DNA of 64,000 nt. Source: Ancylobacter defluvii. Lineage in GTDB: Bacteria > Pseudomonadota > Alphaproteobacteria > Rhizobiales > Xanthobacteraceae. Shown here one piece after another: positions 9,888 to 24,285 of this stretch (positions are counted from its first letter, which is position 1; every line of letters starts with the position of its first letter). The position numbers were made by a program, and so were the translations under genes. The stretch lies in the NCBI RefSeq assembly GCF_018390605.1, contig NZ_JAHBGD010000005.1:372001-436000 (forward strand), given 5' to 3'. The notes under the pieces are model-generated. The model had not been told where the DNA came from, searched no databases, and saw only the letters and a list, made by a program, of their open reading frames with translations.

Positions 9888-9900
9888 GTCGGCTCCGCGT

Positions 9901-9930: not shown

Positions 9931-9961
9931 CTGCCGGCATATAGATGGGCGCCGGTGAAGC

Positions 9962-10381
9962 ATGAGGCGGGTCATGGCGGTTTTGCGGTTGGACGAGCCG
10001 GGGCTGAAGGCGCTTGTCGAGGCATTCTACGCGCGGGTCCGGGCGGATGCCGAACTCGGGCCGGTGTTCGCCGACGCGGTGTCGGACTGGCCGGCGCATC
10101 TCGAGACGCTGGCGGCCTTCTGGTCCTCGGTGATGCTGACCAGCGGCCGCTACAAGGGCCGGCCGGTGCCGGCGCATTTCAAGCATCGCCACCGCATCTC
10201 TCCCGCGCTGTTCGGGCGCTGGCTCGCCTTGTGGGGCCAGACCGCCGACGAACTCATGGAGCCGGCGGTGGCGCAGGCCCTGAAACTCCGGGCTTTGCGC
10301 ATCGCCCACAGCCTGCAATCGGTGCTGTTCGCGCCGCAGGGCGCCGGCGGCCCCTCTCTGCCGCTGCCCGCCGCGAACTGA
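9962..10381 (+). CDS. Group III truncated haemoglobin
   Basis: The 139-residue protein has the group III pattern: LKALVEAFYARVRADAELGPVF, then DWPAHLETLAAFWSSVML, GRYKGRPVPAH and FGRWLALW. The histidine at residue 72, in PVPAHF, lines up with the proximal haem ligand of the Campylobacter group III globin Ctb. It is expected to bind haem and oxygen or nitric oxide in the cytoplasm. The divergent NsrR-like gene and the box between them point to a nitric-oxide response. A second possible start lies 12 bp in. Confidence 0.9.
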   Translation: MRRVMAVLRLDEPGLKALVEAFYARVRADAELGPVFADAVSDWPAHLETLAAFWSSVMLTSGRYKGRPVPAHFKHRHRISPALFGRWLALWGQTADELMEPAVAQALKLRALRIAHSLQSVLFAPQGAGGPSLPLPAAN

Positions 10382-10427: not shown

Positions 10428-11489
10428 CTAGCCGAGGCCACGCGTCAGCACGTGGAGCCAGTCCGCCTCCGTGACCACCCCCACCGGTCGACGGGCCGCA
10501 TCGATGACGAACACCGCGTGCACCCGGTCGCGGGCATAGCGCTCCAAGAGGTCGATCGCCGGCGACGCGGGGGCCGCCGCCGCGGCCGGGGTCATCGCAT
10601 CCCGCACCTGTCCGGCCGGATGCACGAGTTCGCGCAGGCCGACAGAACCGACGAGGCGTCCCTCGGCATCGACCACCGCCAGCCGGCGGATGTCGCGCTT
10701 GACCAGCAGCGCACGGGCCTGCTCGGGCGAGGCGTCTTCCGGCACGCTGATGACGTTCTTCACCATCAGATCGGCACAGCTCAGCTGATGGTAGGAGCGG
10801 GCGACAGCCCGCTTTTCGATATGGCGCACCAGCTCCTCGAGATCTTCGGCGCCGATGTCGTAGGCCTCGCCGACCTCAGCCAGCGTTGCCGCGATGTCGG
10901 CCTTGCTGATGGTCCAGGGCAGGTCCCGCGCGCGGGCCGGCTGCGGCGGCGCGGCGACATGCGGGTAGCTGTGGCCGGACAGCCGATGATAGAGCCACGC
11001 GCTCGCCACCAGCACGACGGCATTCAGTCCGACCGGCACGAAGGGAAACAGCAGGCTCGACGACCCGCCGATGAACAGACCGACCAATGCGGCGGCGCCG
11101 CCGGGTGGGTGCAGGCATCGCAGCAGCGACATGGCGCCGATGGCCAGCGCCACCGCCAGCCCGGCCGAGAGCGCGGTGAGCGGCATGAAATGGCCGATGG
11201 CGACGCCGATGGCGGCGGAGATCACATTGCCACCGATGGCCGGCCAGGGCTGCGCCATCGGGCTTGCCGGCACGGCGAACAGCAGCACCGCCGACGCGCC
11301 CATCGGTGGAACGATCCATACCAGATGATTGAGATCCGCCGCGGCGAGGCCGCCGATCACCGCCGACAGGCCAATCCCCATCAGGGCGCCGAAACAGGCC
11401 AGGGCTCGATCCCGCAGCGTGGCACCGGCGAGGATCGGTCGAAACAGTCGCAAGCGTGCAAAGGCTGACAAGGCCCACTCCAAATGCAC
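10428..11489 (-). CDS. HPP family membrane protein with C-terminal CBS pair
   Basis: This 353-residue protein has an N-terminal HPP membrane domain of four segments with the signatures VWIVPPMGASAVLLFAVPASP and CLHPPGGAAALVGLF (the HPP motif), joined to two CBS domains (LMVKNVISVPEDASPEQARALL and VRDAMTPAAAAAPASPAIDLLERYARD). HPP proteins of cyanobacteria and plastids are reported nitrite transporters. An NsrR-type box lies 100-116 bp upstream of the start, which ties the gene to nitrogen-oxide biology. CBS domains suggest control by an adenine nucleotide. The transported ion is inference. Confidence 0.88.
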   Translation of the reverse strand: MHLEWALSAFARLRLFRPILAGATLRDRALACFGALMGIGLSAVIGGLAAADLNHLVWIVPPMGASAVLLFAVPASPMAQPWPAIGGNVISAAIGVAIGHFMPLTALSAGLAVALAIGAMSLLRCLHPPGGAAALVGLFIGGSSSLLFPFVPVGLNAVVLVASAWLYHRLSGHSYPHVAAPPQPARARDLPWTISKADIAATLAEVGEAYDIGAEDLEELVRHIEKRAVARSYHQLSCADLMVKNVISVPEDASPEQARALLVKRDIRRLAVVDAEGRLVGSVGLRELVHPAGQVRDAMTPAAAAAPASPAIDLLERYARDRVHAVFVIDAARRPVGVVTEADWLHVLTRGLG

Positions 11490-11963
11490 CGCGCCGAAAG
11501 GGGGCTACGGACCCACTCCAGCGGGGATGGACGGAAGCGCCGCCGGACGATGGTCATTTATGCGTCACGGTGCGCCTGTTTTTTAAACATGCAGAAACTA
11601 TGCATGAATAAGGCGGGAGTCCAGCCGGGCGGACGGCGATAGGCCCGAGGCGCGTCGGTCCGCGACATCCGGACCGGCCGGTCGGCGATGGCGTCGGGCA
11701 GGTGTAGAAAGGGCCGAGATGGCTTTCCCTATATCTCATGCAAGACGCGCGGCGCTTTCGGCACCCTAATCCTTCGCCTTTGAAACTAAAATCCATACAC
11801 ATCCTGCGCCGGTGGAAAATTATCCATACGCGGCAAACGATGCTTGCCGGTGCCGCCGCTTCGATGTTCTTTACCCACTCGATGTACTAAAATGCGGCAG
11901 GCGCTTTGCTCCTGCTCACCTCGCCGTCGACACTGGCGACAGACTCGAAGGTGACGTAACGAC
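11490..11963. other. Divergent intergenic region with NsrR-type site
   Basis: This 474-bp stretch separates the HPP gene from the DUF3302 gene that opens the sulfatase locus. Open frames here do not resemble proteins. It holds the inverted repeat at 11589-11605 and several AT-richer patches near 11570-11610 and 11790-11900 that could be promoters for the two divergent units. No RNA gene was recognised. Confidence 0.6.
11589..11605. promoter_or_regulatory. Second candidate NsrR box, upstream of the HPP gene
   Basis: ATGCA, seven bases, then TGCAT: perfect arms with the N7 spacer of the NsrR consensus. Read against the reverse complement of the box at 9908-9924, both share AACATGCA, N7, TRCAT. 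It lies about 100 bp upstream of the HPP start in an AT-rich patch. Confidence 0.6.
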
Positions 11964-12215
11964 ATGGCCACCATCGATATTTTCGCCATCGTGGTTCTCG
12001 TCGTCGCCGTGGCGTCGCTGGTGGCCGTCCTCGTCATTCTCGGCATGGCGCCCGGCTATGTGGCGCGGCGGCGCGGCCATCCCTGGGCTCAGGCGGTCGC
12101 GGTCGCCGGCTGGGTAACGCTGGTCTTCGGCTTCGTGCTGTGGCCACTCGCCTTTATCTGGGCCTATGTCGACGTGCCCGGCCGGCCGGCCGGCAAGCGG
12201 GAGGCGAACCCGTGA
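11964..12215 (+). CDS. DUF3302 (YiaW-like) small membrane protein
   Basis: This 83-residue protein has two membrane segments (IFAIVVLVVAVASLVAVLVIL and AVAGWVTLVFGFVLWPLAFIW) joined by the GYVARRRGHPWAQA loop that marks the DUF3302 family, known as YiaW in E. coli. Its stop overlaps the GTG start of the HlyD-like gene (GTGA), the same pairing as yiaW and yiaV in E. coli. The function is unknown. It is the first gene of the run that ends with a sulfatase. Confidence 0.85.
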   Translation: MATIDIFAIVVLVVAVASLVAVLVILGMAPGYVARRRGHPWAQAVAVAGWVTLVFGFVLWPLAFIWAYVDVPGRPAGKREANP

Positions 12216-13150
12216 TCGTCTTCCTTCTCAACGGCTACATCGCGATTCTGTTGGCGCTGATCTGGCTGAAGATCGTCCCCGCCAACCTGTTCTGGAAAAT
12301 CTCGCCGCTGCTGGTGCTGCTGTTGCTGCTGGTCGGGCTGTTCATCCCCATGGGCTGGGGGGCGCCCGCCGGCGCGGCGTTGGTCGCCCGCCAATCCGTG
12401 CGGATCGTGCCGGACGTGGCGGGCGAGGTGATCGACGTTCCCGTGCAGCCGAACACGCCGCTGAAAGCCGGCGACGTGCTGTTTCGCATCGATCCGGTTC
12501 CCTATGAGGCGCAGCTCCGCGCGCTCGAGGCGCAGTTGGAATTGGCCAGGACCCGCCTCGGCCAGATGACCGAGCTCGCGCAGAAGCAGGCGTCGCCGGA
12601 GTTCAACGTGGAGCAGCGCCGCTCCGAGGTCGACCAGTTGCAGGCCCAGGTCGATGGCGCGGCGTGGAACCTGGACAAGACCACCGTGCGGGCTCCCGCC
12701 GACGGCTATGTGACCAATCTCGCGCTGCGCAAGGGCGCGCGGGTGTCCAACCTCTCGTTCGCGCCGGCGATGGCGTTCATCGACACCTCGGAGACGCTCA
12801 TCGTCGTCGAGGTGCCGCAGATCTACGCTCGCTACATCGAGCCCGGCCAGAAGGCCGAACTGAGCTTCAAATTCCTCCCCGGACAGGTGTTCACCGGCCG
12901 GGTGGAGACGGTGCTTCAGGCGATCGCCAGCGGGCAGGCGGCGCCGTCCGGCAGCGCGCTGGAGCCGAAGGCGATCGAGGCGGCACCGTTCGCGGTGCGG
13001 GTGACGCTGGACGATGCCTCGCTCGCCGAGCGCCTGCCTGCCGGCAGCGTCGGATCGGCGGCGATCTATACCGAACACGTGAAGGTGAGCCACGTTATCC
13101 GCCAGGTGGTGCTGCGGCAGCAGGCCATCCTGAACTATGTTCTGCCGTGA
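12212..13150 (+). CDS. HlyD/YiaV-like membrane fusion protein
   Basis: With the GTG start coupled to the preceding stop the protein has 312 residues. Two N-terminal hydrophobic segments (YIAILLALIWLKIVPANLFW and SPLLVLLLLLVGLFIPMGWG) are followed by a biotinyl-lipoyl-like strand pair (VRIVPDVAGEVIDVPVQPN, then GDVLFRIDPVPYEAQLRALEAQLE), a helical hairpin and a beta-barrel part. It resembles the periplasmic adaptor EmrA/YiaV type. No outer-membrane or pump partner is adjacent, so its partner may be DUF3302 itself. An upstream in-frame ATG would extend it but lies inside DUF3302. Confidence 0.85.
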   Translation: MIVFLLNGYIAILLALIWLKIVPANLFWKISPLLVLLLLLVGLFIPMGWGAPAGAALVARQSVRIVPDVAGEVIDVPVQPNTPLKAGDVLFRIDPVPYEAQLRALEAQLELARTRLGQMTELAQKQASPEFNVEQRRSEVDQLQAQVDGAAWNLDKTTVRAPADGYVTNLALRKGARVSNLSFAPAMAFIDTSETLIVVEVPQIYARYIEPGQKAELSFKFLPGQVFTGRVETVLQAIASGQAAPSGSALEPKAIEAAPFAVRVTLDDASLAERLPAGSVGSAAIYTEHVKVSHVIRQVVLRQQAILNYVLP

Positions 13151-13176
13151 ACCCGCGCGCATGTGACGAGGGAGCC

Positions 13177-14172
13177 ATGAGTCGAGAACACCGCCAACGC
13201 TTCCGACAGACGCCGCCGCGTGCCGACGAGATGGCGTGGATCGAGGGCGGCACCTTCCGCATGGGCTCGGACAGCCATTATCCCGAGGAACGCCCGGCCC
13301 ATCGCGTCAGCGTCGCCGGCTTCTTCATCGACGTGACGCCGGTGAACAATGCGCAGTTCCGGGCCTTCGTCGAGGCGACCGGCCATGTCACGGTGGCGGA
13401 GATCGCGCCCGACCCCAAGGACTATCCCGGCGCGCGGCCGGAGATGCTGAAGGCCGGTTCCTTGGTGTTCACGCCGCCGGATCATCCCGTCGATCTGCGC
13501 GACTGGCGGCAGTGGTGGGATTTCCGCTTTCGTGCCAGCTGGCGCAAGCCCTATGGGCCGGGCAGTTCCCTCAAGGGGCTGGACGAGCATCCGGTGGTGC
13601 ACATCGCCTATGCGGATGCGCTGGCCTATGCGCGCTGGGCCGGCAAGGAACTGCCGACCGAGGCGGAATGGGAGTTCGCCGCCCGCGGCGGCCTCGACGG
13701 AGCGGAATATGCCTGGGGTGAGGAGTTCGCTCCCGACGGCCGGCAGATGGCCAATACCTGGCAGGGCGAGTTCCCGTTCCAGAATCTCGCCCTCGACGGC
13801 TATGAGCGCACCTCGCCGGTGAAGTCCTACCCGCCCAACGGCTACGGCCTGCACGACATGATCGGCAATGTCTGGGAGTGGACCGCCGACTTCTGGTCGA
13901 CCCGGCATCCGGAGGAAGCACTCAGCCCCTGCTGCGTGCCGCAGAACCCGCGCGGCGGCCCGGAGGAGGCGAGCTTCGATCCGGGGCAGCCGACGATCCG
14001 CATCCCGCGCAAAGTGGTCAAGGGCGGTTCGCATCTGTGCGCGCCCAGCTATTGCCGGCGCTACCGGCCGGCCGCGCGACATGCCGAGCCGGTCGACAGT
14101 TCGATGAGCCATATCGGCTTTCGCTGCGTGCGGCGGCCCAAGGCTAGCGACATACCGGGAGATGTATCGTGA
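13177..14172 (+). CDS. Formylglycine-generating enzyme (sulfatase-modifying factor, SUMF1/FGE family)
   Basis: This 331-residue protein starts at an ATG with GAGGGAG just upstream. It has EMAWIEGGTFRMGSDSHYPEERPAHRVSV at the N-terminus, the ELPTEAEWEFAARGG core and GLHDMIGNVWEWTADFW. The active-site pair is present: cysteines 288 and 293 in GGSHLCAPSYCRRYRP, the C-x4-C arrangement of true formylglycine-generating enzymes. It would oxidise a sulfatase cysteine to formylglycine. No signal peptide is seen, so it should act in the cytoplasm before Tat export of the sulfatase encoded 7.4 kb downstream in the same run. Confidence 0.93.
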   Translation: MSREHRQRFRQTPPRADEMAWIEGGTFRMGSDSHYPEERPAHRVSVAGFFIDVTPVNNAQFRAFVEATGHVTVAEIAPDPKDYPGARPEMLKAGSLVFTPPDHPVDLRDWRQWWDFRFRASWRKPYGPGSSLKGLDEHPVVHIAYADALAYARWAGKELPTEAEWEFAARGGLDGAEYAWGEEFAPDGRQMANTWQGEFPFQNLALDGYERTSPVKSYPPNGYGLHDMIGNVWEWTADFWSTRHPEEALSPCCVPQNPRGGPEEASFDPGQPTIRIPRKVVKGGSHLCAPSYCRRYRPAARHAEPVDSSMSHIGFRCVRRPKASDIPGDVS

Positions 14173-15203
14173 GGCGGTTCATGAAGACGGGCGTGCGGCC
14201 CAGCCGGCGGAGCGTTCTCGCATCGGCGCTGCTGGCCTTCGCAGTGTTTTCCGCTCCGGCGGGGCTCGTCGCCCAGACCGCCGATCCGCTGCCCTCGTGG
14301 AACGCGGGACCGGCCAAGCAGTCGATCCGCGCCTTCGTCGAGCGGGTCACCCAGCAGGGGGGCGCCGATTTCGTGCCCGTCGCCGAGCGCATCGCCGTGT
14401 TCGACAATGACGGCACGCTGTGGTCGGAGCAGCCGGTCTATTTCCAGTTCATGTTCGCGCTCGACCGGCTAAAGGATCTGGTGAAGGCGAATCCGGCGCT
14501 GGCCGGGCAGGAGCCCTACAAATCCGCGCTGTCCGGCGACCCCAAGGCGCTGGCGGCGCTCGGCGAGAAGGGACTGCTGCAGATCGTGGCGCTCACCCAT
14601 GCCGGCCTCACCGTCTCGGATTTCCGCGCCCTCGTGCTCGACTGGATCAAGACGGCGCGGCACCCGCGCTTCGACCGGCCCTACACCGAGCTGGTGTTCC
14701 AGCCGATGCTGGAACTGCTGGCCTATCTGCGGGCGAATGGTTTCAAGACTTTCATCGTCTCCGGCGGCGGCGTGGAGTTCATGCGGCCTTGGGCCGAGGG
14801 GGTGTACGGCATCCCGCCCGAGCAGGTGGTCGGCTCCTCCGGCAAGACCGAATTCGTGCTCGACGGCGACACCCCGGTGATGCGCAAGCTGCCGGAGGTC
14901 GAGTTCATCGATGACGGCCCCGGCAAGCCGGTCGGCATCAACCGCTTCATCGGCCGGCGCCCGGTGTTCGCCGCCGGCAATTCCGATGGCGATCAGCAGA
15001 TGCTGCAATGGACGACGTTGAACGCCGGGCCGCGCTTCGGCCTGATCGTCCACCACACCGACGCGGTGCGCGAATGGGCCTATGACCGGACCTCACATAT
15101 CGGCAAGCTCGACAAGGCGCTCGACGAGGCGCCGGCGCGCGGCTGGCTCGTCGTCGATATGAAGACCGACTGGAACATCATTTACCCCTTCGAGAAGAAG
15201 TGA
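14169..15203 (+). CDS. HAD family phosphatase-like protein, Tat-exported
   Basis: The 344-residue protein opens with a twin-arginine-like signal (PSRRSVLASALLAFAVFSAPAGLVAQ). HAD motif I is FDNDGT (nucleophile Asp79, second Asp81), motif II is SGGG near residue 198, Lys lies in GSSGKTEF, and motif III is AGNSDGD. This places it near the phosphoserine-phosphatase class. It probably hydrolyses a phosphoester in the periplasm. The GTG start overlaps the stop of the formylglycine enzyme gene; a GGGAG element precedes it. Its link to sulfatase function is unknown. Confidence 0.88.
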   Translation: MRRFMKTGVRPSRRSVLASALLAFAVFSAPAGLVAQTADPLPSWNAGPAKQSIRAFVERVTQQGGADFVPVAERIAVFDNDGTLWSEQPVYFQFMFALDRLKDLVKANPALAGQEPYKSALSGDPKALAALGEKGLLQIVALTHAGLTVSDFRALVLDWIKTARHPRFDRPYTELVFQPMLELLAYLRANGFKTFIVSGGGVEFMRPWAEGVYGIPPEQVVGSSGKTEFVLDGDTPVMRKLPEVEFIDDGPGKPVGINRFIGRRPVFAAGNSDGDQQMLQWTTLNAGPRFGLIVHHTDAVREWAYDRTSHIGKLDKALDEAPARGWLVVDMKTDWNIIYPFEKK

Positions 15204-15204
15204 C

Positions 15205-16176
15205 ATGTCGGCGCGCGACCCCATCCTTGAGATCCAATCCCGTGTGAACCGCTCCGTCATCGGCCAGGAGCGGGTGGTCGAACGCCTGGTCATCGCCTTG
15301 CTCGCCAATGGCAATGTGCTGCTGGAAGGCTTGCCGGGCCTCGCCAAGACCCGCGCCATCAAGAGCCTCTCGCAGGCGCTGGAGAGCGAATTCAGCCGCA
15401 TCCAGTTCACCCCCGACCTGCTGCCCTCCGACGTCACCGGCGGCGAGATCTACCGCACCGATGCCGCCGGCTCGGGCAGCTTCGAGTTCCGCAAGGGGCC
15501 GATCTTCGGCAATCTGGTGCTGGCGGACGAGATCAACCGCGCTCCGGCCAAGGTGCAGTCGGCGCTGCTGGAGGCGATGGAGGAGCGGCAGGTCACCGTC
15601 TCCGGCACCCGCTATCCGCTGCCGGAGCTGTTCATGGTGCTGGCGACGCAGAACCCCATCGAGCAGGAGGGAACCTATCCGCTGCCCGAGGCGCAGATGG
15701 ACCGTTTCCTCATGCATGTGCGCATCGACTATCCGAGCGATGCCGACGAGGCCAAGGTGCTGCGGCTGGTGCGCGCCGAACAGGCCGGTACCGCCGAGGC
15801 GCCGCCGCCAAAGGTGGTGCAGAGCGCGATCTTCGATGCCCGCAAAGAGATCGACGCGGTGAAGATGGTCGAGGCGGTTGAGAGCTACATGGTGGCGCTG
15901 GTCGCCGCCACCCGCCGGCCCGCCGAGTTCGGCGACCAGCTGAAGGCGTGGATCGGCATCGGCGCCAGCCCGCGCGGCACGCTGGCGCTCGACCGCGCCT
16001 CGCGCGCCTTCGCCTGGCTGCAGGGGCGCGATTATGTGACGCCCGAGGATGTGCAGAACGTCGCGCATGACTGCCTGCGCCACCGCGTCTCGCTCACCTA
16101 TGAAGCGAGCGCCGACGGCAAGCGCGCCGATGACGTGATCGACGAACTGATCCGCCAGGTCGCGGTGGCAGTGTAG
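15205..16176 (+). CDS. MoxR family AAA+ ATPase
   Basis: This 323-residue cytoplasmic ATPase has Walker A GLPGLAKT (residues 42-49), Walker B VLADEINRAP, sensor 1 MVLATQNPIEQEGTYPLPEAQMDRF and a C-terminal lid. MoxR ATPases act with VWA proteins as chaperone or metal-insertion machines. The gene starts 2 bp after the HAD stop and is followed by the classic MoxR partners DUF58, DUF4381, two VWA proteins, TPR and BatD. Here the module is embedded between the sulfatase-maturation enzyme and the sulfatase. Confidence 0.95.
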   Translation: MSARDPILEIQSRVNRSVIGQERVVERLVIALLANGNVLLEGLPGLAKTRAIKSLSQALESEFSRIQFTPDLLPSDVTGGEIYRTDAAGSGSFEFRKGPIFGNLVLADEINRAPAKVQSALLEAMEERQVTVSGTRYPLPELFMVLATQNPIEQEGTYPLPEAQMDRFLMHVRIDYPSDADEAKVLRLVRAEQAGTAEAPPPKVVQSAIFDARKEIDAVKMVEAVESYMVALVAATRRPAEFGDQLKAWIGIGASPRGTLALDRASRAFAWLQGRDYVTPEDVQNVAHDCLRHRVSLTYEASADGKRADDVIDELIRQVAVAV

Positions 16177-16185
16177 GGGGCGGCG

Positions 16186-17208
16186 ATGGCAGGGAACGCC
16201 CATCCGGACGCCCGCGCCCAAGACGTTCGCGCCCAAGACGTTCGCGCCCAAGACGCTCGTGCTTATGTCACGCTCGACGACCTGCTGCGGCTGCGCCATC
16301 GCGCCAAGGGCTTCAGCTTCCTGCCGAAACAGCCGGTGCATTCGCTGCTGGCGGGGCGCCACGCCTCGCGGCTGAGGGGGCGCGGGCTCGAATTCGAGGA
16401 ACTGCGCCATTATTACGAGGGCGACGACGTGCGCGCCATCGACTGGCGCGCCACCGCCCGGCTCGGCGAGCCGCAGCTGCGCGTTTATACCGAGGAGCGC
16501 GACCGGCCGGTGCTGCTGCTGGTGGACCAGCGGCTCGGCATGTTCTTCGGCAGCCGCCTCGCCATGAAGTCGGTGGTGGCGGCCGAAGCGGCGGCGCTGG
16601 CGGCGTGGCGGGTGACCTCGCTCGGCGACCGGATCGGAGGAATCGTCTTTTCCGAGAATGGGATGGACGAAATCCGCCCCCGCGCGCGGCAGGCCGCCAT
16701 CGGACCGCTGTTCGACGCCATCGTCCGCCGCAATGGCGAGCTTCGGGCCGAGGACCCGCGCCCATCCGACCCTTCGCTGCTCAACGCCGCGCTCGCCAAG
16801 GTGCCGCAATTGCTGCCGCATGACGGGCTGCTCACCCTGATTACCGATGCGGCGGGGGCGGATGCCGAGACGGTGCGGCTGGTGACGCGGATCACCGCCC
16901 ATAACGACGTGCTCACCGTCTTCGTCTTCGATCCGCTGGAGGCGGAGCTGCCGGATGTCGGCCGCGCCGTGGTCGCGGATGCAGGCAGCCAGATCGAAAT
17001 TGACAGCGCCGGCAGTAGCTTACGACGCAGCTTCGCGGCCGGGTTCCTCCAGCGGCGGGAGGCGGTCGAGGGGTTTTCCCGCCAACGCGCCATCCCGGTG
17101 CTGCCGCTCTCCACCGGGCGCGACACCGCCGACCAGTTCCGCGAACTGCTCGGCCGGCGGCTGGCGCGATCGCTGACGGCGGGCCATCAGGCGAGTGCAG
17201 TGAGATGA
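16186..17208 (+). CDS. DUF58 protein of the MoxR/VWA module
   Basis: A 340-residue protein with the DUF58 signature LEFEELRHYYEGDDVRAIDWRATARLG and VYTEERDRPVLLLVDQR, and a VWA-like C-terminal half. DUF58 proteins nearly always follow MoxR genes and are thought to act with the ATPase. The stop overlaps the start of the DUF4381 gene by 4 bp. The N-terminus carries three AQDVR-type pentapeptides from a 15-bp tandem repeat, outside the conserved domain. Confidence 0.92.
   Translation: MAGNAHPDARAQDVRAQDVRAQDARAYVTLDDLLRLRHRAKGFSFLPKQPVHSLLAGRHASRLRGRGLEFEELRHYYEGDDVRAIDWRATARLGEPQLRVYTEERDRPVLLLVDQRLGMFFGSRLAMKSVVAAEAAALAAWRVTSLGDRIGGIVFSENGMDEIRPRARQAAIGPLFDAIVRRNGELRAEDPRPSDPSLLNAALAKVPQLLPHDGLLTLITDAAGADAETVRLVTRITAHNDVLTVFVFDPLEAELPDVGRAVVADAGSQIEIDSAGSSLRRSFAAGFLQRREAVEGFSRQRAIPVLPLSTGRDTADQFRELLGRRLARSLTAGHQASAVR
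16213..16257 (+). repeat. Three tandem 15-bp units in the 5' end of the DUF58 gene
   Basis: Three consecutive 15-bp units (the third with one change) encode RAQDV-type pentapeptides just after the start. The number of units could vary without frameshift. Confidence 0.85.
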
Positions 17209-17666
17209 CCGATCAGGCCGATCTGTCGCGTCTCGCCGACATCGTCGTGCCGGCGCCGGTGCCGTGGTGGCCGCCGGCGCCGGGCTGGTGGATGCTGCTT
17301 GCCGCCCTCCTCGCCGGGCTGCTCATCCTGCTCGTTGCGGCGGTGCGGCGCTGGCGGCGAAATGCCTATCGGCGGGAGGCGCTGGCGGCGCTCGACCGGC
17401 TCGGCCCCGCCACCGATGCGGCGGGCGTGGCGGCCATCTCGGCGATACTGAAGCGGACGGCGCTGGTCGCCTATCCGCGCGCGCAGGTGGCGCCGCTTAC
17501 CGGGCGGGCCTGGCTCGCCTTCCTCGACCGCACCTCCGGCACCGATGCCTTTACGGGCAGCGCCGCCAGCCTGGCGCCGGCAGTGTCCGGCGTCCCGGCC
17601 GGCGATGGCGCGGCGCTGCGGGCGGCGGCGCGGCGCTGGGTGAAGCATCACCGGGCGGAGGGCTAG
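17205..17666 (+). CDS. DUF4381 membrane protein
   Basis: This 153-residue protein has the N-terminal pattern LADIVVPAPVPWWPPAPGWWMLLAALLAGLLILLVAAVRRWRR, with one membrane anchor, and a helical cytoplasmic part (AVAAISAILKRTALVAYPRAQVAPLTGRAWLAFLDRT in general outline). These features mark DUF4381, a constant partner of MoxR/VWA operons. Function is unknown. It overlaps the DUF58 gene and precedes the first VWA gene by 2 bp. Confidence 0.9.
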   Translation: MTDQADLSRLADIVVPAPVPWWPPAPGWWMLLAALLAGLLILLVAAVRRWRRNAYRREALAALDRLGPATDAAGVAAISAILKRTALVAYPRAQVAPLTGRAWLAFLDRTSGTDAFTGSAASLAPAVSGVPAGDGAALRAAARRWVKHHRAEG

Positions 17667-17668
17667 CG

Positions 17669-18694
17669 ATGCTGTCCTTCGCCTATCCCTGGCTCGCCTT
17701 GCTGTTGCCGATGCCGGCGCTGATCTATTGGCTGCTGCCGGCCTATGAGACCCGCCGTCCCGCCGTCCGGGTGCCGTTCTTCGCCGAGCTGGCGCGGCTC
17801 TCCGGGGCGCAGCCGCACGAGGGGGCCAGCATCGGCCGGCGCGGTTTCTGGCGGCTCATTGCTCTGGTGCTGTGCTGGCTGCTGGTCCTCGGCGCGCTGA
17901 TGCGCCCGCAATGGGTGCTGCCGCCGATCCATCAGGATAGGCCGGCACGCGATCTGCTGCTGCTGGTCGACCTCTCGGCGTCGATGGACACGCAGGACTT
18001 CACCGACGCCTCGGGCAACAAGGTGAACCGGCTCGTCGCGGTGAAGCAGGTGCTGGACGATTTCCTCGCCCGCCGGCAGGGCGACCGGGTCGGCGTCGCC
18101 GTGTTCGGCAATGCGCCGTTCGCGCTGGTGCCGTTCACCACCGATCTCGGGCTCGCCCGGCAATTGCTCGGCGAGATGCAGGTCGGCATGGCCGGGCCGC
18201 GCACCGCCCTTGGCGACGCCATCGGCCTCGGCATCAACCTGTTCGCCGGCTCGACGGTGCCGGCCAAGACCATCATCGCGCTCACCGACGGCAACGACAC
18301 CGCCAGCCAGGTGCCGCCGGCCGAGGCGGCGCGGGTGGCGCATGACAAGGGCATCGTCATCCACACTGTCGCCGTAGGCGATCCGGCGGCGGCGGGCGAG
18401 GAGAAGCTCGACGAGGCGGCGCTCAAGCAGGTTGCCGAACTGACCGGCGGCGGCTTCTACCGCGCGCTCGACCGCGACCAGCTGGCCGGAATCTATACCC
18501 AGCTCGACAGCATAGAGACGCGCAAGGTCGATACGGTGTCGTTCCAGCCCAAGGTCGAGCTGTTCTGGCTGCCGCTGGCGGCGCTCACGGCGCTGTCCAT
18601 GCTGGTGCAGGCGCTGCGGCTGCTGCGCTGGCCGCGCCGGCGCACGGAGGCGACGCCATCATCCTCGTCCTCGTCCTCGGAGGCGGCGCGATGA
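17669..18694 (+). CDS. VWA domain membrane protein (BatA-like)
   Basis: The 341-residue protein has an N-terminal aerotolerance-type hydrophobic pair (FAYPWLALLLPMPALIYWLLPA and a second segment near residues 62-78), then a von Willebrand A domain with an intact MIDAS: DLSAS (Asp101, Ser103, Ser105), a Thr in the TALGDAIG loop and Asp in ALTDGND. A C-terminal membrane segment follows. The VWA domain should face the periplasm and bind a divalent metal. The start ATG lies 3 bp beyond the DUF4381 stop, and the stop overlaps the next gene by 4 bp. Confidence 0.92.
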   Translation: MLSFAYPWLALLLPMPALIYWLLPAYETRRPAVRVPFFAELARLSGAQPHEGASIGRRGFWRLIALVLCWLLVLGALMRPQWVLPPIHQDRPARDLLLLVDLSASMDTQDFTDASGNKVNRLVAVKQVLDDFLARRQGDRVGVAVFGNAPFALVPFTTDLGLARQLLGEMQVGMAGPRTALGDAIGLGINLFAGSTVPAKTIIALTDGNDTASQVPPAEAARVAHDKGIVIHTVAVGDPAAAGEEKLDEAALKQVAELTGGGFYRALDRDQLAGIYTQLDSIETRKVDTVSFQPKVELFWLPLAALTALSMLVQALRLLRWPRRRTEATPSSSSSSSEAAR

Positions 18695-19599
18695 TGGACG
18701 GGCTCGCGCAACTGCATTTCCTGCGCCCGTGGTGGCTGCTGCTGGTACTGCCGGCGCTGGGCCTGTGGTGGCTGGGGCGGCGCGAGGCCGACACCACGGC
18801 GCGCTGGCGGCGGGCCATCGATCCCGCGCTGCTGCGCCATCTCATTATCGGCGGCGACGCCCGCCGGTGGCTGAACCCGGAAAACCTGCTGCTGGCGGCC
18901 TGGATCGTCGGCATTCTCGCCGTGGCCGGCCCGACATGGCGGCAGCTGCCATCGCCCTTCGCCCAGGCAGCGCGGCCGGCGATGTTCGTCGTCAAGGTCA
19001 CGCCTTCCATGCTGGAGCGCGACCTCGCCCCGACCCGCCTCGACCGCGCCCGGCAGAAGATGGCCGACCTGCTGAAGCTGCGCGAGGGCGCGCCGACCGG
19101 GCTGGTCGCCTATGCCGGCTCGGCGCATCTGGTGTTGCCGCCGACGCCGGATGCCGCGGTGGTGGGCACGATGGCGGCGGCGCTGGCGCCCGATCTCATG
19201 CCGCGCCAGGGCGACGCGCTGGCCGATGCGGTGACGCTCGCTTCCGACGCCCTGCGGCGCGGCGGGCAGGGCGGCTCGGTGCTGGTCTTCGCCGATGCGG
19301 CGCCGGCGCTGGACGACGGCGCAGCGGCAGCGCCGGTGACGCTGTACGCCCTGCATCCGCCCGGACGCGATGCCGACCCCTCGATCGCGGTGGCGGCGGC
19401 GGCGCTTCATGCCGACGTCGTCGATCTGACCCTGGATGATGGCGATGTCGGCGATCTCGCGCATATCCTCGCCACCGCCGGGCCGCCGCCGCCGGCGCCG
19501 GGCGAGGGCGTGCAGTGGGAGGAGGCGGGCTATTGGCTGACGCCATTGCTCGCCCTTCTGGCGCTGCTCTGGTTCCGGCGCGGATGGGTGCTGGCATGA
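18691..19599 (+). CDS. Second VWA-type membrane protein (BatB-like) with degenerate MIDAS
   Basis: This 302-residue protein keeps the FLRPWWLLLVLPALGLWW N-terminal pair and a C-terminal membrane segment, so it is built like BatB. The MIDAS is not conserved: where family members have VLDVSPSM, this one has VKVTPSM at residues 101-107, with Lys102 in place of the metal-binding Asp and Thr104 in place of Ser. The later Asp-Gly motif is also replaced (FADAAPAL). It may have lost metal binding and act as a structural partner of the intact VWA protein upstream. Confidence 0.85.
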   Translation: MMDGLAQLHFLRPWWLLLVLPALGLWWLGRREADTTARWRRAIDPALLRHLIIGGDARRWLNPENLLLAAWIVGILAVAGPTWRQLPSPFAQAARPAMFVVKVTPSMLERDLAPTRLDRARQKMADLLKLREGAPTGLVAYAGSAHLVLPPTPDAAVVGTMAAALAPDLMPRQGDALADAVTLASDALRRGGQGGSVLVFADAAPALDDGAAAAPVTLYALHPPGRDADPSIAVAAAALHADVVDLTLDDGDVGDLAHILATAGPPPPAPGEGVQWEEAGYWLTPLLALLALLWFRRGWVLA

Positions 19600-20237
19600 G
19601 CACATGGCGCGCTTTTGCCATTGTCGGCATGGCCTTGGTCGCGGCGCTCGGCGCCGGCGTCTGGGCGATGGGCTGGAAGCCGCTCTGGGCCAGCGCCGAC
19701 CAGCGCGGGCGATATCTTTTCGAGCACCAGCGCTGGGCCGATGCCGCGAATGCCTTCCGCGACCCGATGTGGCGCGGCGTGGCGCAGATGCGCGCCGGCG
19801 ACTTCAAGGCGGCGGAGGCTTCCTTCGCCGGCGTCGACACCGCCGACGGGGCGTATAATCAAGCCAATGCATTGGTGATGCTCGGTAAATATGACGAGGC
19901 GGTAAAGCGCTACGACCACGCGCTGGAGCGGCGGCCGGGCTGGCCTGAGGCGCAGGCCAATCGCGAGATCGCCGCCTTGCGCGCCGAGCGGCTGAAGGCG
20001 CCCGGCGCCGATGCCGGCGACCAGCGCGAGGGCGCCGACCAGATCGTCTACGACAAGGACGCCAAGAACCCGGAGGGCCAGGAGACGCAAACAGCCGGCG
20101 CGCTGATGAACGATGAAGCCGTGCGCGCGTTGTGGCTGAAGCGGGTGCGCACCGAGCCGGCGGATTTTCTGCGCGCACGCTTCGCCTATCAGCTGGAGCA
20201 GCAGGCCGGCACGCAGAAAGGGAGCGGTGCGCCATGA
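19596..20237 (+). CDS. TPR protein of the MoxR/VWA module
   Basis: The 213-residue protein has one N-terminal membrane anchor (FAIVGMALVAALGAGVWAMG) and a TPR-like region (residues about 45-130: RYLFEHQRWADAANAFRDP, AYNQANALVMLGKYDEAVKRYDHAL). The C-terminal part is charged and ends with RTEPADFLRARFAYQLEQQ. This matches the TPR partner (BatC type) of aerotolerance operons. Both ends overlap the neighbouring genes by 4 bp. Confidence 0.88.
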   Translation: MSTWRAFAIVGMALVAALGAGVWAMGWKPLWASADQRGRYLFEHQRWADAANAFRDPMWRGVAQMRAGDFKAAEASFAGVDTADGAYNQANALVMLGKYDEAVKRYDHALERRPGWPEAQANREIAALRAERLKAPGADAGDQREGADQIVYDKDAKNPEGQETQTAGALMNDEAVRALWLKRVRTEPADFLRARFAYQLEQQAGTQKGSGAP

Positions 20238-21535
20238 GAACGATGCTGGCTCTGCTTCTGCTGATGCTGGCCGGCCCGCTCGCGGCGCAGGAGGCCGCGC
20301 CCTCCGCTGCCGCGTCGCCCGCTGCGGCTCCATCCGCGGCGCCGCCGGTGGTGGTGCGCGAGGGGCTCGACCCGGCTTCGGGCGCGGTGGTCGGCCAGCA
20401 TGTGACGCTGCATGTCGACGTGCTGTTTCCGGGCGCCATGGCGCATCCGCCGCGCGTCAGCCTGCCGGACGTGCCCGGCCTGCAGATCATCCGTTTCGAG
20501 ACGCAGGGCACCACGATGCGCGAGAGCATCGGCGGCAACGCCTATGTCGGCCAGCGCTTCGAGTTCGCCCTGTATCCGCGCCGTGGCGGCGGCTTCGACA
20601 TTCCGCCCGCCGCGGTGACGCTGCTCGACCGCGAGGGCGGCGAGACCGGCAGCGCGCAGGGCCAGCAGGCGCGGCTCGAGGTGAGCGTGCCGCCGGGCGT
20701 CGATGCCTCGCAGCCTGTCGTCGCCACCCGCCGGCTGACATTGGACGAGCAATGGGCGCCGGTGCCGACGGGGCGGTTCAAGGCGGGCGATGCCGTGGTG
20801 CGCACCGTCACCCGCAGCGCCGAGGACATTCCCGGCCTCGCCATGCGCGATCTCGACATCGCGGCGCCGGACGGCGTGCGGGTCTATGCCGATCCGCCGG
20901 ATATCGAGGACCGCAGCAATCGCGGCGTCGTCACCGGCCGCAGGGTCGATCGCATCACCTATGTCTTCGCGCAGGGCGGCCGCTTCGTGCTGCCGGCGAT
21001 GGCGCAGCCCTGGTGGGATCTCGGCACGCGCAGCCTGAAGAGCGCGGCGGCGGCGGCGGTGACGGTGGATGTCGCGGCGACACCGGCGGCGGCTGGCGGC
21101 GCCGGCCACGGGAGCTGGAGGCGCCTGGCCTGGCCGGCAATCGGCCTGGCCGTGCTGATCGTGCTGGCCTGGGGAGCATGGCAGGTGAGGGCGCGGCGGC
21201 GGGCGCGGGGCGCCGATCCCGAGCGCGCCGCCTTCGCCGCGCTGCGGCGCGCCTGCGCCGGGACCGATGCCGACGAAATCTATCGCCGTTTCTCCTCCTG
21301 GACGAGCCAGTTGCCGCCGCAGCGGCGCCAGGCGGCCAATTGCGAGGCGGGCACGCTTCAGGCGGCGCTGTTCGCCGCCGGCACCCCGCCATGGACCCAC
21401 GAGGACTCGCGCCTTCTGCTGGCCGGCCTCGAGACGCTTCGCCGGCGGCACCCGCCTGCCGGCCCGCCGGCGGCGCTGCCGCCGCTCAATCCCGCCACGC
21501 CGGCCCACGGGGTCGGATGGAAGGTAAGTTCATGA
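20234..21535 (+). CDS. BatD-like periplasmic protein with C-terminal anchor
   Basis: The 433-residue protein has a Sec signal (MRTMLALLLLMLAGPLAAQ), beta-rich domains (VGQHVTLHVDVLFPGAMAHPP, GGGFDIPPAAVTLLDREGG) and a membrane helix near residue 300 (PAIGLAVLIVLAWGAWQV) followed by a cytoplasmic tail. This is the architecture of BatD/oxygen-tolerance proteins. It ends the MoxR/VWA block, 50 bp before the sulfatase gene. The role is probably to hold substrate or complex partners in the periplasm. Confidence 0.87.
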   Translation: MRTMLALLLLMLAGPLAAQEAAPSAAASPAAAPSAAPPVVVREGLDPASGAVVGQHVTLHVDVLFPGAMAHPPRVSLPDVPGLQIIRFETQGTTMRESIGGNAYVGQRFEFALYPRRGGGFDIPPAAVTLLDREGGETGSAQGQQARLEVSVPPGVDASQPVVATRRLTLDEQWAPVPTGRFKAGDAVVRTVTRSAEDIPGLAMRDLDIAAPDGVRVYADPPDIEDRSNRGVVTGRRVDRITYVFAQGGRFVLPAMAQPWWDLGTRSLKSAAAAAVTVDVAATPAAAGGAGHGSWRRLAWPAIGLAVLIVLAWGAWQVRARRRARGADPERAAFAALRRACAGTDADEIYRRFSSWTSQLPPQRRQAANCEAGTLQAALFAAGTPPWTHEDSRLLLAGLETLRRRHPPAGPPAALPPLNPATPAHGVGWKVSS

Positions 21536-21585
21536 AAAACAAGAAAATTATCGAAGCCCCCGCAGGACATTAAGGAGAGACACAT

Positions 21586-23235
21586 ATGTCGACGGACAAC
21601 ACTGGCACGCCCGCGAATGGCAGAGTGAGCCGCCGCTCGCTGCTGGCGGGTTCGACCGCGCTGGTCGCCGCCGCGGCGGCGATCGGGACGGCGTCGCAGG
21701 CTGCCGCGCAGGGGCAGCCCGCCGCCGGCGCTTCCCCTTCCGGCAAGGCGCCGAACATCCTCGTCATCTTCGGCGACGACATCGGCGTCTCGCAGATCAG
21801 CGCCTACACCATGGGGTTGATGGGCTATCGCACGCCGAACATCGACCGCATCGCCGCGGAAGGCGCGATCTTCACCGATTCCTACGGCCAGCAGAGCTGC
21901 ACCGCCGGCCGCGCCTCCTTCATCCTCGGGCAGGAGCCGTTCCGCACCGGGCTGCTCACCATCGGCATGCCGGGCGACCCGCATGGCATCGCCGACTGGA
22001 TGCCGACCATCGCCGACGTGATGAAGACGCGCGGCTACGCCACCGGCCAGTTCGGCAAGAACCATCTCGGCGACCAGGACCAGCATCTGCCGACCAATCA
22101 CGGCTTCGACGAATTCTTCGGCAATCTCTACCATCTCAACGCCGAGGAGGAGCCGGAAGGCTATTTCTACCCGAAGGATCCGGAGTTCCGGAAGAAATAC
22201 GGCCCGCGCGGGGTGATCCATTCCTATGCCGACGGCCGCATCGAGGACACCGGGCCGCTCAACACCAAGCGCATGGAGACCATCGACGAGGAGTTTCTCG
22301 GCGCCGCCAAGGACTTCATCGACCGCCAGCACAAGGCGGACAAGCCGTTCTTCGTCTGGTTCAACTCGACCCGCATGCATGTCTTCACCCACCTCAAGCC
22401 GGACAGCAACGGCAAGACCGGCAAGGGCATCCACGCCGACGGCATGGTCGAGCATGACGGCCATGTCGGGCAGCTGTTGAAGCAGCTCGACGACCTCGGC
22501 ATCACCGAGGACACCATCGTGCTCTACACCACCGACAACGGCGCCGAGCTGGCGCTGTGGCCGGATGGGGCGATGACGCCGTTCCATGGCGAGAAGGGCA
22601 CCACCTGGGAAGGTGGCATGCGCATCCCGATGATGGTGCGCTGGCCGGGCGTGGTGAAGCCGGGCTCGCAGATCAACGACATCGTCACGCTGATGGACTG
22701 GATGCCGACCTTCGCCACCGCGGGCGGCCTTCCCGACCTGAAGGAAAAGATGAAGACCGGTTTCCAGGCCGGCTCCAAGACCTTCAAGGTGCATCTCGAC
22801 GGCTATGATCTGACCGACCTGCTGAAGGGCACCGCGCAGACGCCGCCGCGCGACGTGATGTACTACTTCGACCAGGGCGGCAACCTCAATGCCATCCGCT
22901 GGAACGACTGGAAGCTCAGCTTCGCCGTCGCCAGCGAGGGCAACATCGCCACCGCCACCCGTGAGCAGCCGAGCTGGGCGCTTATCGAGAACCTGCGCAT
23001 GGACCCCTACGAGCGGGGATCGAAGGAAGGCGGCGGCGCGATGGAATTCATTGCCCGCAACATGTGGCTGCTGGTGCCGATCCAGGGCAAGGTCAAGGAG
23101 CTCTTTGCCGACTTCAACGACTACCCCTTCCAGGAAGGCAGCACGCTCAATCCGAGCGGCATCAATTACGGGATGCTGAAGCAGCAGGCCGCCATGAAAC
23201 GCCTGCAGGACGTGGAGCGGCTGGCCCCGCGCTAG
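21586..23235 (+). CDS. Type I sulfatase (arylsulfatase family), Tat-exported
   Basis: This 549-residue enzyme has a twin-arginine signal (SRRSLLAGSTALVAAAAAIG) and the alkaline-phosphatase-like sulfatase fold: metal ligands in NILVIFGDDIG, the formylglycine site CTAGR at residues 105-109 (Cys105), GKNHLGD, and TTDNGAE with a following Lys in GEKGTTWEGG. Cys105 would be converted by the formylglycine enzyme encoded upstream. The site has Ala where the classic motif has Pro. Being Tat-exported, it can be modified and folded in the cytoplasm first. The sulfate ester hydrolysed is unknown. Confidence 0.93.
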   Translation: MSTDNTGTPANGRVSRRSLLAGSTALVAAAAAIGTASQAAAQGQPAAGASPSGKAPNILVIFGDDIGVSQISAYTMGLMGYRTPNIDRIAAEGAIFTDSYGQQSCTAGRASFILGQEPFRTGLLTIGMPGDPHGIADWMPTIADVMKTRGYATGQFGKNHLGDQDQHLPTNHGFDEFFGNLYHLNAEEEPEGYFYPKDPEFRKKYGPRGVIHSYADGRIEDTGPLNTKRMETIDEEFLGAAKDFIDRQHKADKPFFVWFNSTRMHVFTHLKPDSNGKTGKGIHADGMVEHDGHVGQLLKQLDDLGITEDTIVLYTTDNGAELALWPDGAMTPFHGEKGTTWEGGMRIPMMVRWPGVVKPGSQINDIVTLMDWMPTFATAGGLPDLKEKMKTGFQAGSKTFKVHLDGYDLTDLLKGTAQTPPRDVMYYFDQGGNLNAIRWNDWKLSFAVASEGNIATATREQPSWALIENLRMDPYERGSKEGGGAMEFIARNMWLLVPIQGKVKELFADFNDYPFQEGSTLNPSGINYGMLKQQAAMKRLQDVERLAPR

Positions 23236-23254
23236 GCGTCGACCATTGCGCATG

Positions 23255-23285
23255 GCGTGGCGGCGGCTCATCGCTGCCGCCACGC
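23255..23285 (+). terminator. Hairpin after the sulfatase gene
   Basis: A 13-bp stem (GCGTGGCGGCGGC, loop TCATC, GCTGCCGCCACGC, one G-T pair) lies 20 bp after the stop codon. It has no T run, so it is a likely but T-poor end of the twelve-gene unit. Confidence 0.55.
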
Positions 23286-23411
23286 TTCGGCGAGGTCCCG
23301 AGTTGACTGCTGGCCGGTGCCATCCGGCGGGGCCGTGGCGGGCGGTTCGTCGATGTCTCTGCGATCCGCTCGGCAGCGCCGTTCACCAGGCGATCAGGTG
23401 GCCCGATGTCG

Positions 23412-23845
23412 TCAGGGCGCGGCCAGCCGTTCGAGCGTGCCGGGATCGGGCGCGCCTTGATAGAACTGGCGCAGCCCTGCTTCGAAAAGCTGCGCATCGT
23501 CCGGCGCCGGCGCCGCGGCCCGGAACAGCGTCAGGCAGGAGCGGAACTTGAGATCGTCCGGCGTGCCGAGGATCTCCCGAACCGGCATGCCGGTGTGCCG
23601 GAGCAGCGCGCGCACATGGCGCCGCAGGCGTTCGCGAGCACGGGATCGGCGAGATAGCGCCGCGCCTGATCGAGATCGGCGAGGGCGAAGAACCGGGCGT
23701 TCGGCGAGGAGCCGAGACCGGCCAGCTGCGGAAAGACGAACCACATCCAATGCGTCCGCTTGCGGCCGGCGGCCAGCTCCGCCTCGACCTGCCCGATCAC
23801 CGGGTTCTGAGCGGTGACGAAGCGCAGGAGATCCGCATCGGTCAT
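23412..23845 (-). pseudogene. DUF1810 family gene broken by a one-base deletion
   Basis: The N-terminal half (23845 down to about 23640) reads MTDADLLRFVTAQNPVIGQV, RKRTHWMWFVFPQLAGLGSSP and ARRYLADPVLA, which are DUF1810 hallmarks. The C-terminal half is in another frame (RLRRHVRALLRHTGMPVREILGTPDDLKFRS, then LTLFRAA) down to the stop at 23412. The join is near 23633-23640; one added G there would give a continuous VLGERLRRHV. The gene overlaps the CoxG gene by 4 bp. The break may be decay or a sequencing error. DUF1810 function is unknown. Confidence 0.85.
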
Positions 23846-24285
23846 GTCGCCGCCAGCCGCTCCGTGAGGCTGGAGAAGAACTGGTCGGCCAGCTTGCGCG
23901 AGGTCGCCTGCACCAGGCGCCCGCCCAGCGAGGCGAGCTTGCCGCCGATCTCGGCCCTGGCGACGTAGCTCAGCACAGTTTCCTCTCCATCGGCGGCGAG
24001 CGTCACCTCGGATGCGCCCTTGGCGAAGCCGGCGACGCCGCCATTGCCCTGGCCGACGATGCGGCAGCCCTGTGGCGCATCGATGTCCTGCAATTCGACG
24101 GTGCCGGCGAAGGTTGCCGAGACCGGGCCGACCTTGAGCTGCACCGTGGCTTTGAAGCTGGTCGGCGAGGTGCGCTCCAGCTCCTTGCAGCCGGGAATGC
24201 AGGCCTTCAGCGCCTCGACGTCGAACAGCGCGGCCCAGACCGCCTCGCGCGACGCCGCGATGCGGTGTTCGCCGGTAATATCCAT
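23842..24285 (-). CDS. CoxG-like SRPBCC protein (carbon monoxide dehydrogenase subunit G family)
   Basis: This 147-residue protein has the CoxG pattern: MDITGEHRIAASREAVWAALFDVEALKACIPGCKELE, then VQLKVGPVSATFAGTVEL and GNGGVAGFAKGASEVTL, ending LADQFFSSLTERL. CoxG proteins help molybdenum hydroxylases of the CODH family associate with the membrane. It is the usual companion of coxMSL-type genes, here separated from them by an ABC transporter but on the same strand. Confidence 0.9.
   Translation of the reverse strand: MDITGEHRIAASREAVWAALFDVEALKACIPGCKELERTSPTSFKATVQLKVGPVSATFAGTVELQDIDAPQGCRIVGQGNGGVAGFAKGASEVTLAADGEETVLSYVARAEIGGKLASLGGRLVQATSRKLADQFFSSLTERLAAT

What the first reader, a model, noticed from the sequence alone, without database searches (positions are those of the whole stretch)
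11964..23285. Sulfatase maturation genes fused in one run with a complete MoxR/VWA (Bat) module
Twelve same-strand genes, most overlapping or within a few bases, run from DUF3302 and HlyD-like through a true formylglycine enzyme, a Tat-exported HAD protein, MoxR, DUF58, DUF4381, two VWA, TPR and BatD to a Tat-exported sulfatase, with a hairpin at the end. MoxR/VWA systems help assemble or metallate enzymes in known cases (methanol dehydrogenase). Here the client may be the calcium-dependent sulfatase, giving a dedicated assembly or surface-display machine. I do not know of a described function for this combination.
Basis: partly seen in the sequence, partly recalled or inferred. Interest (0 to 1): 0.85.

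Follow-up and report, generated by a model that had tools for sequence, protein, structure and literature searches.

The report
Sulfatase genes with MoxR-VWA maturation machine
A bacterial operon joins a sulfatase and its activating enzyme to an ATP-driven, membrane-spanning helper machine related to the one that loads calcium into methanol dehydrogenase, and the same pairing recurs in distant bacteria, which suggests a machine specialised for making sulfatases work.

Summary
The twelve genes are present as described. The core (MoxR, DUF58, DUF4381, VWA, VWA, TPR, BatD) belongs to one well-supported clade of Bat-type modules tied to sulfatase genes: in a 90-row tree all 46 sulfatase-linked modules fall into one clade of 54 (100% support; 100/100 in a second tree), labelled alpha- and gamma-Proteobacteria, Bacteroidota, Acidobacteriota and others. 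A sulfatase HMM finds none at 78 other Bat loci (63 of them at least 15 kb). The sulfatase lies upstream, downstream or on the opposite strand, so linkage seems kept by selection. Three clade members have FGE but no sulfatase in reach. The window's genome also has an mxa cluster; profiles give each of MxaR, S, A, C, K, L a partner in this module. Best reading: a dedicated trans-envelope machine that finishes exported sulfatases, probably by loading the active-site Ca2+. Against strict need: 18 genomes with this sulfatase family show no such module, one with an 86% identical sulfatase. DUF3302/HlyD are optional; surface display has no support. No paper on the combination was found in the held library. 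New variant of a known kind; decisive evidence must be experimental.

The parts
11964..12215 (+). DUF3302 membrane protein; optional member
   Evidence: Pfam PF11742 1.5e-29; absent in L031 and L033, beside module-less sulfatases in L034 and L043
12212..13150 (+). HlyD-like membrane fusion protein; optional member
   Evidence: PF16576 2.3e-13; same distribution as DUF3302
13177..14172 (+). Formylglycine-generating enzyme (FGE)
   Evidence: PF03781 1.9e-80; solved FGE 6s07 4.9e-68 with the cysteine pair aligned
14181..15203 (+). Exported HAD hydrolase (alternative GTG start at 14169)
   Evidence: PF12710 2e-11; solved relative 4ovy 1.7e-118
15205..16176 (+). MoxR AAA+ ATPase
   Evidence: PF07726 9.8e-64; Walker A and B motifs; pairs with MxaR 8e-46
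16186..17208 (+). DUF58 protein
   Evidence: PF01882 2.3e-36; pairs with MxaS 4e-17
17205..17666 (+). DUF4381 protein, one predicted membrane helix
   Evidence: PF14316 4.2e-40; no sure Mxa partner
17669..18694 (+). VWA protein 1 (BatA-like), full MIDAS motif
   Evidence: PF00092 4.9e-14; DxSxS, T and DG in 42 of 42 rows; pairs with MxaC 8e-26
18691..19599 (+). VWA protein 2; first MIDAS aspartate replaced by lysine
   Evidence: PF13519 4.4e-12; aspartate present in 23 of 40 rows, not here; pairs with MxaC and MxaL
19596..20237 (+). TPR protein with N-terminal membrane helix
   Evidence: PF07719 2.1e-9; pairs with MxaK 1e-8
20234..21535 (+). BatD-like protein (signal peptide, C-terminal helix)
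   Evidence: PF13584 21.6 bits, below cut-off 24.1; pairs with MxaA 1e-5, 81%
21586..23235 (+). Sulfatase with twin-arginine signal, C-T-A-G-R motif; proposed client
   Evidence: PF00884 1.1e-45; active-site and metal positions invariant in 17 sequences
23255..23285 (+). Hairpin after the operon, no T-run
   Evidence: not conserved in sequence

Best explanation
A sulfatase production line with its own trans-envelope machine. FGE turns C105 of the sulfatase into formylglycine in the cytosol (established for this enzyme class). The sulfatase is exported (twin-arginine signal here). The module then finishes the exported apo-enzyme: the cytosolic MoxR ATPase, with DUF58 and the cytosolic parts of DUF4381 and BatD, drives membrane-anchored VWA, TPR and BatD domains that hold the sulfatase so that its active-site divalent metal, most likely Ca2+, can enter. 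This copies how the MxaRSACKL machine serves methanol dehydrogenase. Shown here: linkage, one clade, homology to Mxa, conserved motifs. Inferred: the sulfatase as client, Ca2+, energy coupling, site of action outside the inner membrane.
For: All 46 sulfatase-linked modules in one clade of 54, support 100 (45 of 53; 36 of 42 at 100/100). No sulfatase at 78 other Bat loci, four positive controls found. Position of the nearest sulfatase in 45 linked loci: upstream same strand 28, downstream 14, opposite strand 3. In an even draw of 385 genomes of the class the clade module is in 3 of 8 genomes with the sulfatase and was not seen in the other 377 (p = 5.9e-6). Three clade modules stand with FGE, two of them also with HAD, without a sulfatase in the stretch (L164, L165, L176), which points to maturation rather than substrate use. 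[quoted passage not shown] VWA1 MIDAS intact in 42 of 42 rows. Metal and formylglycine positions invariant in 17 sulfatases.
Against: 18 genomes with the sulfatase family show no clade module, including L084 with an 86% identical sulfatase; 8 of those 18 are MAGs by title and may be incomplete. Sulfatases with and without module are interleaved on the sulfatase tree (24 changes). Five clade modules have neither sulfatase nor FGE in reach, one of them on a 4.2-kb contig. Linked rows were mostly found through the sulfatase. FGE was seen in only 5 and HAD in 8 of 26 linked loci. No biochemical evidence of any kind.
Confidence: 0.5

Rival explanations
1. The module is specialised for this pathway but its client is another exported protein of it: the HAD hydrolase, a linked PF01663 phosphodiesterase, or the multihaem cytochrome with TPRs found beside some clade modules.
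For: HAD is near 8 of 26 linked loci and also near module-less sulfatases; the cytochrome family is in 13 and the phosphodiesterase family in 5 of 52 clade loci (one representative of each scanned). L164 and L176 have module, FGE and HAD without sulfatase.
Against: None of these is as regular a neighbour as the sulfatase (46 of 54 clade rows, though most rows were found through the sulfatase); the cytochrome and the phosphodiesterase were not seen at the window's locus.
Confidence: 0.17
2. The module remodels, folds or regulates the sulfatase or its export without metal loading, as a general chaperone.
For: MoxR-VWA pairs act in diverse ways; CbbQ-CbbO is thought to remodel rather than insert metal (passage in PMC12657314). 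Sulfatase metals are commonly thought to bind without helpers (recalled).
Against: The nearest machine with the same parts in the same genome is the calcium-related Mxa one.
Confidence: 0.2
3. Neighbourhood without function: ordinary Bat modules that happen to travel with sulfatase genes, for example by transfer of whole islands.
For: Transfer occurs: Gilvimarinus L100 groups with alphaproteobacterial modules. Ordinary Bat genes are studied in stress tolerance, not sulfatases (titles and abstract starts). The sulfatase often lives without the module.
Against: No sulfatase at 78 other Bat loci; order and strand differ between linked loci; of 12 genomes that hold both types, counted by hand, 10 have a sulfatase at a clade copy and none at the ordinary copy.
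Confidence: 0.1

Closest known systems
MxaRSACKL module of Ca2+-dependent methanol dehydrogenase (also in this genome, L201)
   Same: MoxR, DUF58, two VWA, TPR and BatD-like parts each have a partner; next to an exported enzyme with an active-site divalent metal
   Different: Client is a sulfatase; DUF4381 has no sure Mxa partner; other gene order; MoxR only 35% identical to MxaR
Ordinary Bat (Bacteroides aerotolerance) module
   Same: Same seven components; best sequence relatives outside the clade
   Different: Separate clade; no sulfatase, FGE or HAD match at 78 loci; VWA1 structure 4rck belongs to this kind
NorQ-NorD, RavA-ViaA, CbbQ-CbbO and CO dehydrogenase MoxR-VWA pairs (as listed in PMC12657314)
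   Same: MoxR with VWA partner gene-linked to a client metalloenzyme
   Different: Those listed act on other enzymes; the trans-membrane Bat-type parts (BatD, TPR, DUF4381) are, from memory, not part of them
FGE (SUMF1-type) sulfatase activation
   Same: FGE gene with cysteine pair beside its sulfatase
   Different: No MoxR-VWA module is part of the described pathway in what was searched

Membership tests
MoxR-VWA enzyme-maturation machines (Mxa type) | MoxR AAA+ ATPase with Walker motifs and VWA partner with MIDAS | tested here: met
   VWA1 MIDAS in 42 of 42 rows
MoxR-VWA enzyme-maturation machines (Mxa type) | Homologues of MxaR, S, A, C, K, L | tested here: met
   MxaA-BatD is the weakest (81%, 1.2e-5)
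MoxR-VWA enzyme-maturation machines (Mxa type) | Conserved gene linkage to one client enzyme class | tested here: met
MoxR-VWA enzyme-maturation machines (Mxa type) | Client inactive or metal-free without the module | not testable with these tools
   Needs mutants; indirect evidence is mixed, since 18 genomes have the sulfatase without the module
Mxa proper | Next to methanol dehydrogenase mxaF/mxaI | tested here: not met
   The genome's mxaI is about 200 kb away with its own RSACKL set
Bat module | MoxR, DUF58, VWA, VWA, TPR, BatD in one run | tested here: met
   BatD below the Pfam cut-off
Type I (formylglycine) sulfatase | Sulfatase fold family, C-x-P/A-x-R motif, metal-binding Asp/Asn | tested here: met
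   roles of residues recalled from arylsulfatase A
Type I (formylglycine) sulfatase | Hydrolyses sulfate esters and binds Ca2+ | not testable with these tools
   No assay
FGE | FGE domain with catalytic cysteine pair | tested here: met
Tat substrate | Twin-arginine signal used for export | tested here: inconclusive
   Motif seen by eye and by regular expression only

The most novel reading that the evidence does not exclude
A further, unnamed class of trans-envelope MoxR-VWA machine, parallel to Mxa, that uses cytosolic ATP to complete the metal site of formylglycine sulfatases after export; sulfatase biogenesis would then have a second dedicated step after FGE in many bacteria.
Probability: 0.4. 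Interest if true: 0.82.

Novelty: new variant of a known kind. Interest (0 to 1): 0.68.

Why it matters
Bat-type MoxR-VWA modules are common, yet their clients are mostly unknown; the abstract of PMC3557215 (listing) says of Bat proteins that a specific function had not been demonstrated. A clade whose steady neighbour is an enzyme that is easy to assay makes the client question directly testable. If sulfatases gain from such a machine, that also bears on making active sulfatases in other hosts.

Tried and rejected
One unit of twelve genes: rejected (DUF3302-HlyD stands beside module-less sulfatases in L034 and L043).

Strict need of the sulfatase for the module: rejected. 18 genomes searched with VWA1 and DUF58 gave at best 101.5 and 110.4 bits against 264-502 and 241-397 in three control genomes; the lowest tblastn scores inside the clade are 157 (VWA1, a cut contig; otherwise 187) and 176 (DUF58; 64 for the cut L163). 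Ten stretches around next-best hits in nine of these genomes show other MoxR types and no sulfatase; one, L263, is an mxa cluster.

A feature that separates sulfatases with and without module: none found. On the sulfatase tree the label needs 24 changes (16 forced by starred branches), fewer than in shuffles (31.6) but far from one clade. Tat-like motif in 14 of 59 rows with module at the locus and 2 of 15 in module-less genomes, by regular expression only.

Hairpin as a conserved element: not conserved in sequence; no Rfam match in 11400-23600.

A solved structure of a clade VWA: 4rck is nearer to an ordinary Vibrio Bat VWA (1.4e-100) than to the clade one (1.5e-45).

No structure prediction was run; single chains would not test the client question.

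Rows dropped: L034:4356-5945 left out of alignment A1. Left out of the second tree: L079-L083, L163, L198. 8 of 33 class-sample loci and 1 of 40 gamma loci had too few of the three genes for the trees. 40 of 51 strong gamma DUF4381 loci were fetched; of the 11 left out by hand ten lie within 5 kb of a contig start and one is a second copy in one genome. 27 of the 52 loci without module have both flanks of at least 9 kb; 25 are cut short.
Full report
Observation. FGE has the cysteine pair and aligns along its length with solved FGEs. The sulfatase has C-T-A-G-R; in an alignment of 17 sequences (window and 16 relatives) D64, D65, C105, R109, K158, H160, H265, D317, N318 and K337 are invariant. 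From memory of human arylsulfatase A these are the metal, formylglycine and catalytic positions. The 13-nt inverted repeat at 23255-23285 folds well but has no T-run.

Conservation in relatives. The sulfatase was sought in 61 genomes, the window's own included, and 20 stretches chosen from the best matches were fetched and mapped with tblastn. Eight of the 20 have the module with a sulfatase. L032 has all twelve genes in the same order; L031 and L033 have ten. Others keep sulfatase and module together in other orders (L035, L038, L040, L041, L042). DUF3302-HlyD also stands directly before sulfatases without a module (L034, L043).

Conservation at large. A scan of genome contigs with the sulfatase alignment kept the best 80 loci (more exist). 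26 have at least three of five core module genes within the stretch; two more are cut by a contig end; 27 with both flanks of at least 9 kb have none; 25 without module are cut short. FGE is seen in 5 and HAD in 8 of the 26 linked loci. Linked loci carry the labels Alpha- and Gammaproteobacteria, Bacteroidota (L111, L113, L114, L125), Acidobacteriota (L126), Campylobacterota (L118) and a record named Gemmata (L095); L163 (Calditrichota) is one of the two cut loci. L118, L126 and L163 are MAGs, so these labels are less secure than those of isolates.

Controls. In an even draw of 385 genomes of the class, DUF4381 is over its cut-off in 31. 33 loci were fetched (all 29 with 61 bits or more outside the window's genome, and 4 weak ones). 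Only L061 and L072 have the sulfatase, and they also have the DUF58 (41, 44%) and VWA1 (41, 42%) nearest to the window's; the others reach at most 37 and 38%. The sulfatase at E up to 1e-100 is in 8 of the 385. The clade module is in 3 of these 8, the window's genome included, and was not seen in the other 377 (p = 5.9e-6; presence judged through DUF4381, and 8 of the 33 loci could not be placed on the tree). In 114 Gammaproteobacteria, 51 strong DUF4381 loci were found besides the two of the centre genome; 40 were fetched and none has the sulfatase. An HMM of diverse sulfatases (E up to 0.001, frames of 150 or more residues) finds none at 78 loci taken as ordinary and none at the 8 clade loci without family sulfatase, while four positive controls are found. 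69 of the 78 are placed outside the clade by the tree; 9 had too few genes to be placed. 63 of the 78 are at least 15 kb long; no FGE or HAD match is at any of the 78, HlyD at one.

One clade. A tree of MoxR, DUF58 and VWA1 from 90 loci puts all 46 sulfatase-linked modules (window included), three with FGE only and five with neither into one clade of 54, SH-aLRT 100; the 36 rows outside have no linked module. With 39 gamma loci added and seven distant or incomplete rows left out, the clade has 53 rows, 45 linked, and no gamma-draw row. A 71-row tree gives 100/100 for the clade, 36 linked of 42. Calditrichota (L163, a third of the columns) is only in the first tree. Linked rows were mostly found through the sulfatase, which inflates their share inside the clade but cannot explain the lack of sulfatases outside it.

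A less biased set. 17 clade modules were met through DUF4381 at places other than the query locus (L164-L167, L169, L171, L173-L177, L179, L180, L182, L183, L188, L193): 9 have a sulfatase, 3 FGE without sulfatase, 5 neither; the 12 ordinary copies met in the same search have none (p = 1.2e-4 for 12 of 17, 0.003 for 9 of 17; counted by hand, tests). L169 is on the contig of the query locus L105; without it the figures are 11 and 8 of 16, p = 2.5e-4 and 0.008. By hand, 12 genomes hold both types: 10 have a sulfatase at a clade copy, none at the ordinary copy; several contigs are short.

Limits of the link. Of 49 genomes with a close sulfatase, 22 have the module at that locus, 14 elsewhere or beyond the 10-kb flank, 13 not. 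These 13 and 5 more from the class draw were searched with VWA1 and DUF58: nothing near the clade's scores. 8 of the 18 are MAGs by title. Sulfatases with and without module are interleaved on the sulfatase tree, though less than at random. So the module implies the sulfatase far more than the reverse: it looks like a dedicated helper, not an absolute need.

The Mxa parallel. The window's genome is the only one of 240 in a class draw with mxaI; the order draw has it in 16 of 150. The cluster reads mxaF, J, G, I, R, S, A, C, K, L, D (L201; names by recall of the mxa order, mxaI by PF02315). Profiles from 14 mxa clusters and from clade loci, all against all: MoxR-MxaR 8e-46, VWA1-MxaC 8e-26, DUF58-MxaS 4e-17, VWA2-MxaC 3e-13, VWA1-MxaL 2e-13, VWA2-MxaL 2e-11, TPR-MxaK 1e-8, BatD-MxaA 1e-5 (81%). 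Of the non-corresponding pairs VWA1-MxaS is high (90%, 2e-6) and VWA2-MxaS reaches 24%; the rest are at 15% or less. DUF4381 has no sure partner (MxaA C-terminal part 8.5%, MxaK 15%). [quoted passage not shown] PMC12997753 (passages) says that MxaJ-type proteins may help insert PQQ and metal, so the calcium step may involve other helpers too. PMC12482762 (passages) gives partly different names and functions for Mxa proteins. Morris et al. 1995 was seen only as a reference.

Mechanism. Hydropathy and charge fit an outside VWA domain of VWA1, an outside N-terminal domain of BatD and an inside domain of DUF4381; for TPR and VWA2 the charge pattern does not decide. MoxR and DUF58 have no helix. 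No topology program was run. VWA1 keeps DxSxS, T and DG in 42 of 42 rows; VWA2 keeps the first aspartate in 23 of 40 and has lysine in the window. FGE acts in the cytosol before export (established knowledge). The step left for the module is during or after export: metal entry or remodelling. Metal entry is favoured by the Mxa parallel; that the metal is Ca2+ is inferred. The role of the HAD hydrolase (solved relative 4ovy) is open.

Literature. Searches with MoxR and sulfatase, BatD, BatA, DUF58, DUF4381, arylsulfatase, metalloenzyme, calcium gave no paper on this combination. Papers that hold both MoxR and (aryl)sulfatase were opened for passages: PMC5579227 and PMC6704131 list them as separate proteins in metaproteomes; PMC7159879 and PMC8195603 mention the FGE-like domain in MoxR-VWA conflict systems. 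Only open-licence papers are held, so older or subscription work may exist.

Verdict. A real, widely recurring, clade-specific association with a testable mechanism, homologous to known machines, with a client class not described in what I could search.

Noticed in passing
L201:5763-16074 (same contig, about 200 kb from the window start): Complete-looking mxa cluster (mxaFJGIRSACKLD) in the window's genome, so two homologous MoxR-VWA modules with different neighbours live side by side.
   Followed up: yes
L121:5440-7827 and 12 other clade loci: A multihaem cytochrome c with TPRs recurs beside the module in 13 of 52 clade loci (one representative scanned); role unknown.
   Followed up: partly
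L061:5850-7595; same cluster in L040, L110, L163, L171: A PF01663 phosphodiesterase of the alkaline phosphatase superfamily sits near the module in 5 of 52 clade loci: a possible second client.
   Followed up: partly
18691-19599: VWA2 lacks the first MIDAS aspartate here; it is kept in 23 of 40 clade rows, so the second VWA has lost it repeatedly while the first never did.
   Followed up: partly
L044:9119-10633: A sulfatase paralogue of the same family in the window's genome has an in-frame TGA, next to another sulfatase.
   Followed up: no
L110 and L131: The FGE-like hits beside these clade modules show no FGE cysteine pair where the region was read; for L147 and L163 the matched stretch showed no motif either and may be cut.
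   Followed up: no
9468-10381: Rrf2 regulator next to a 139-aa ORF without Pfam match that looks by eye like a truncated globin.
   Followed up: no
23842-24285: CoxG-like protein beside a branched-chain-type ABC transporter set, no CO dehydrogenase looked for.
   Followed up: no
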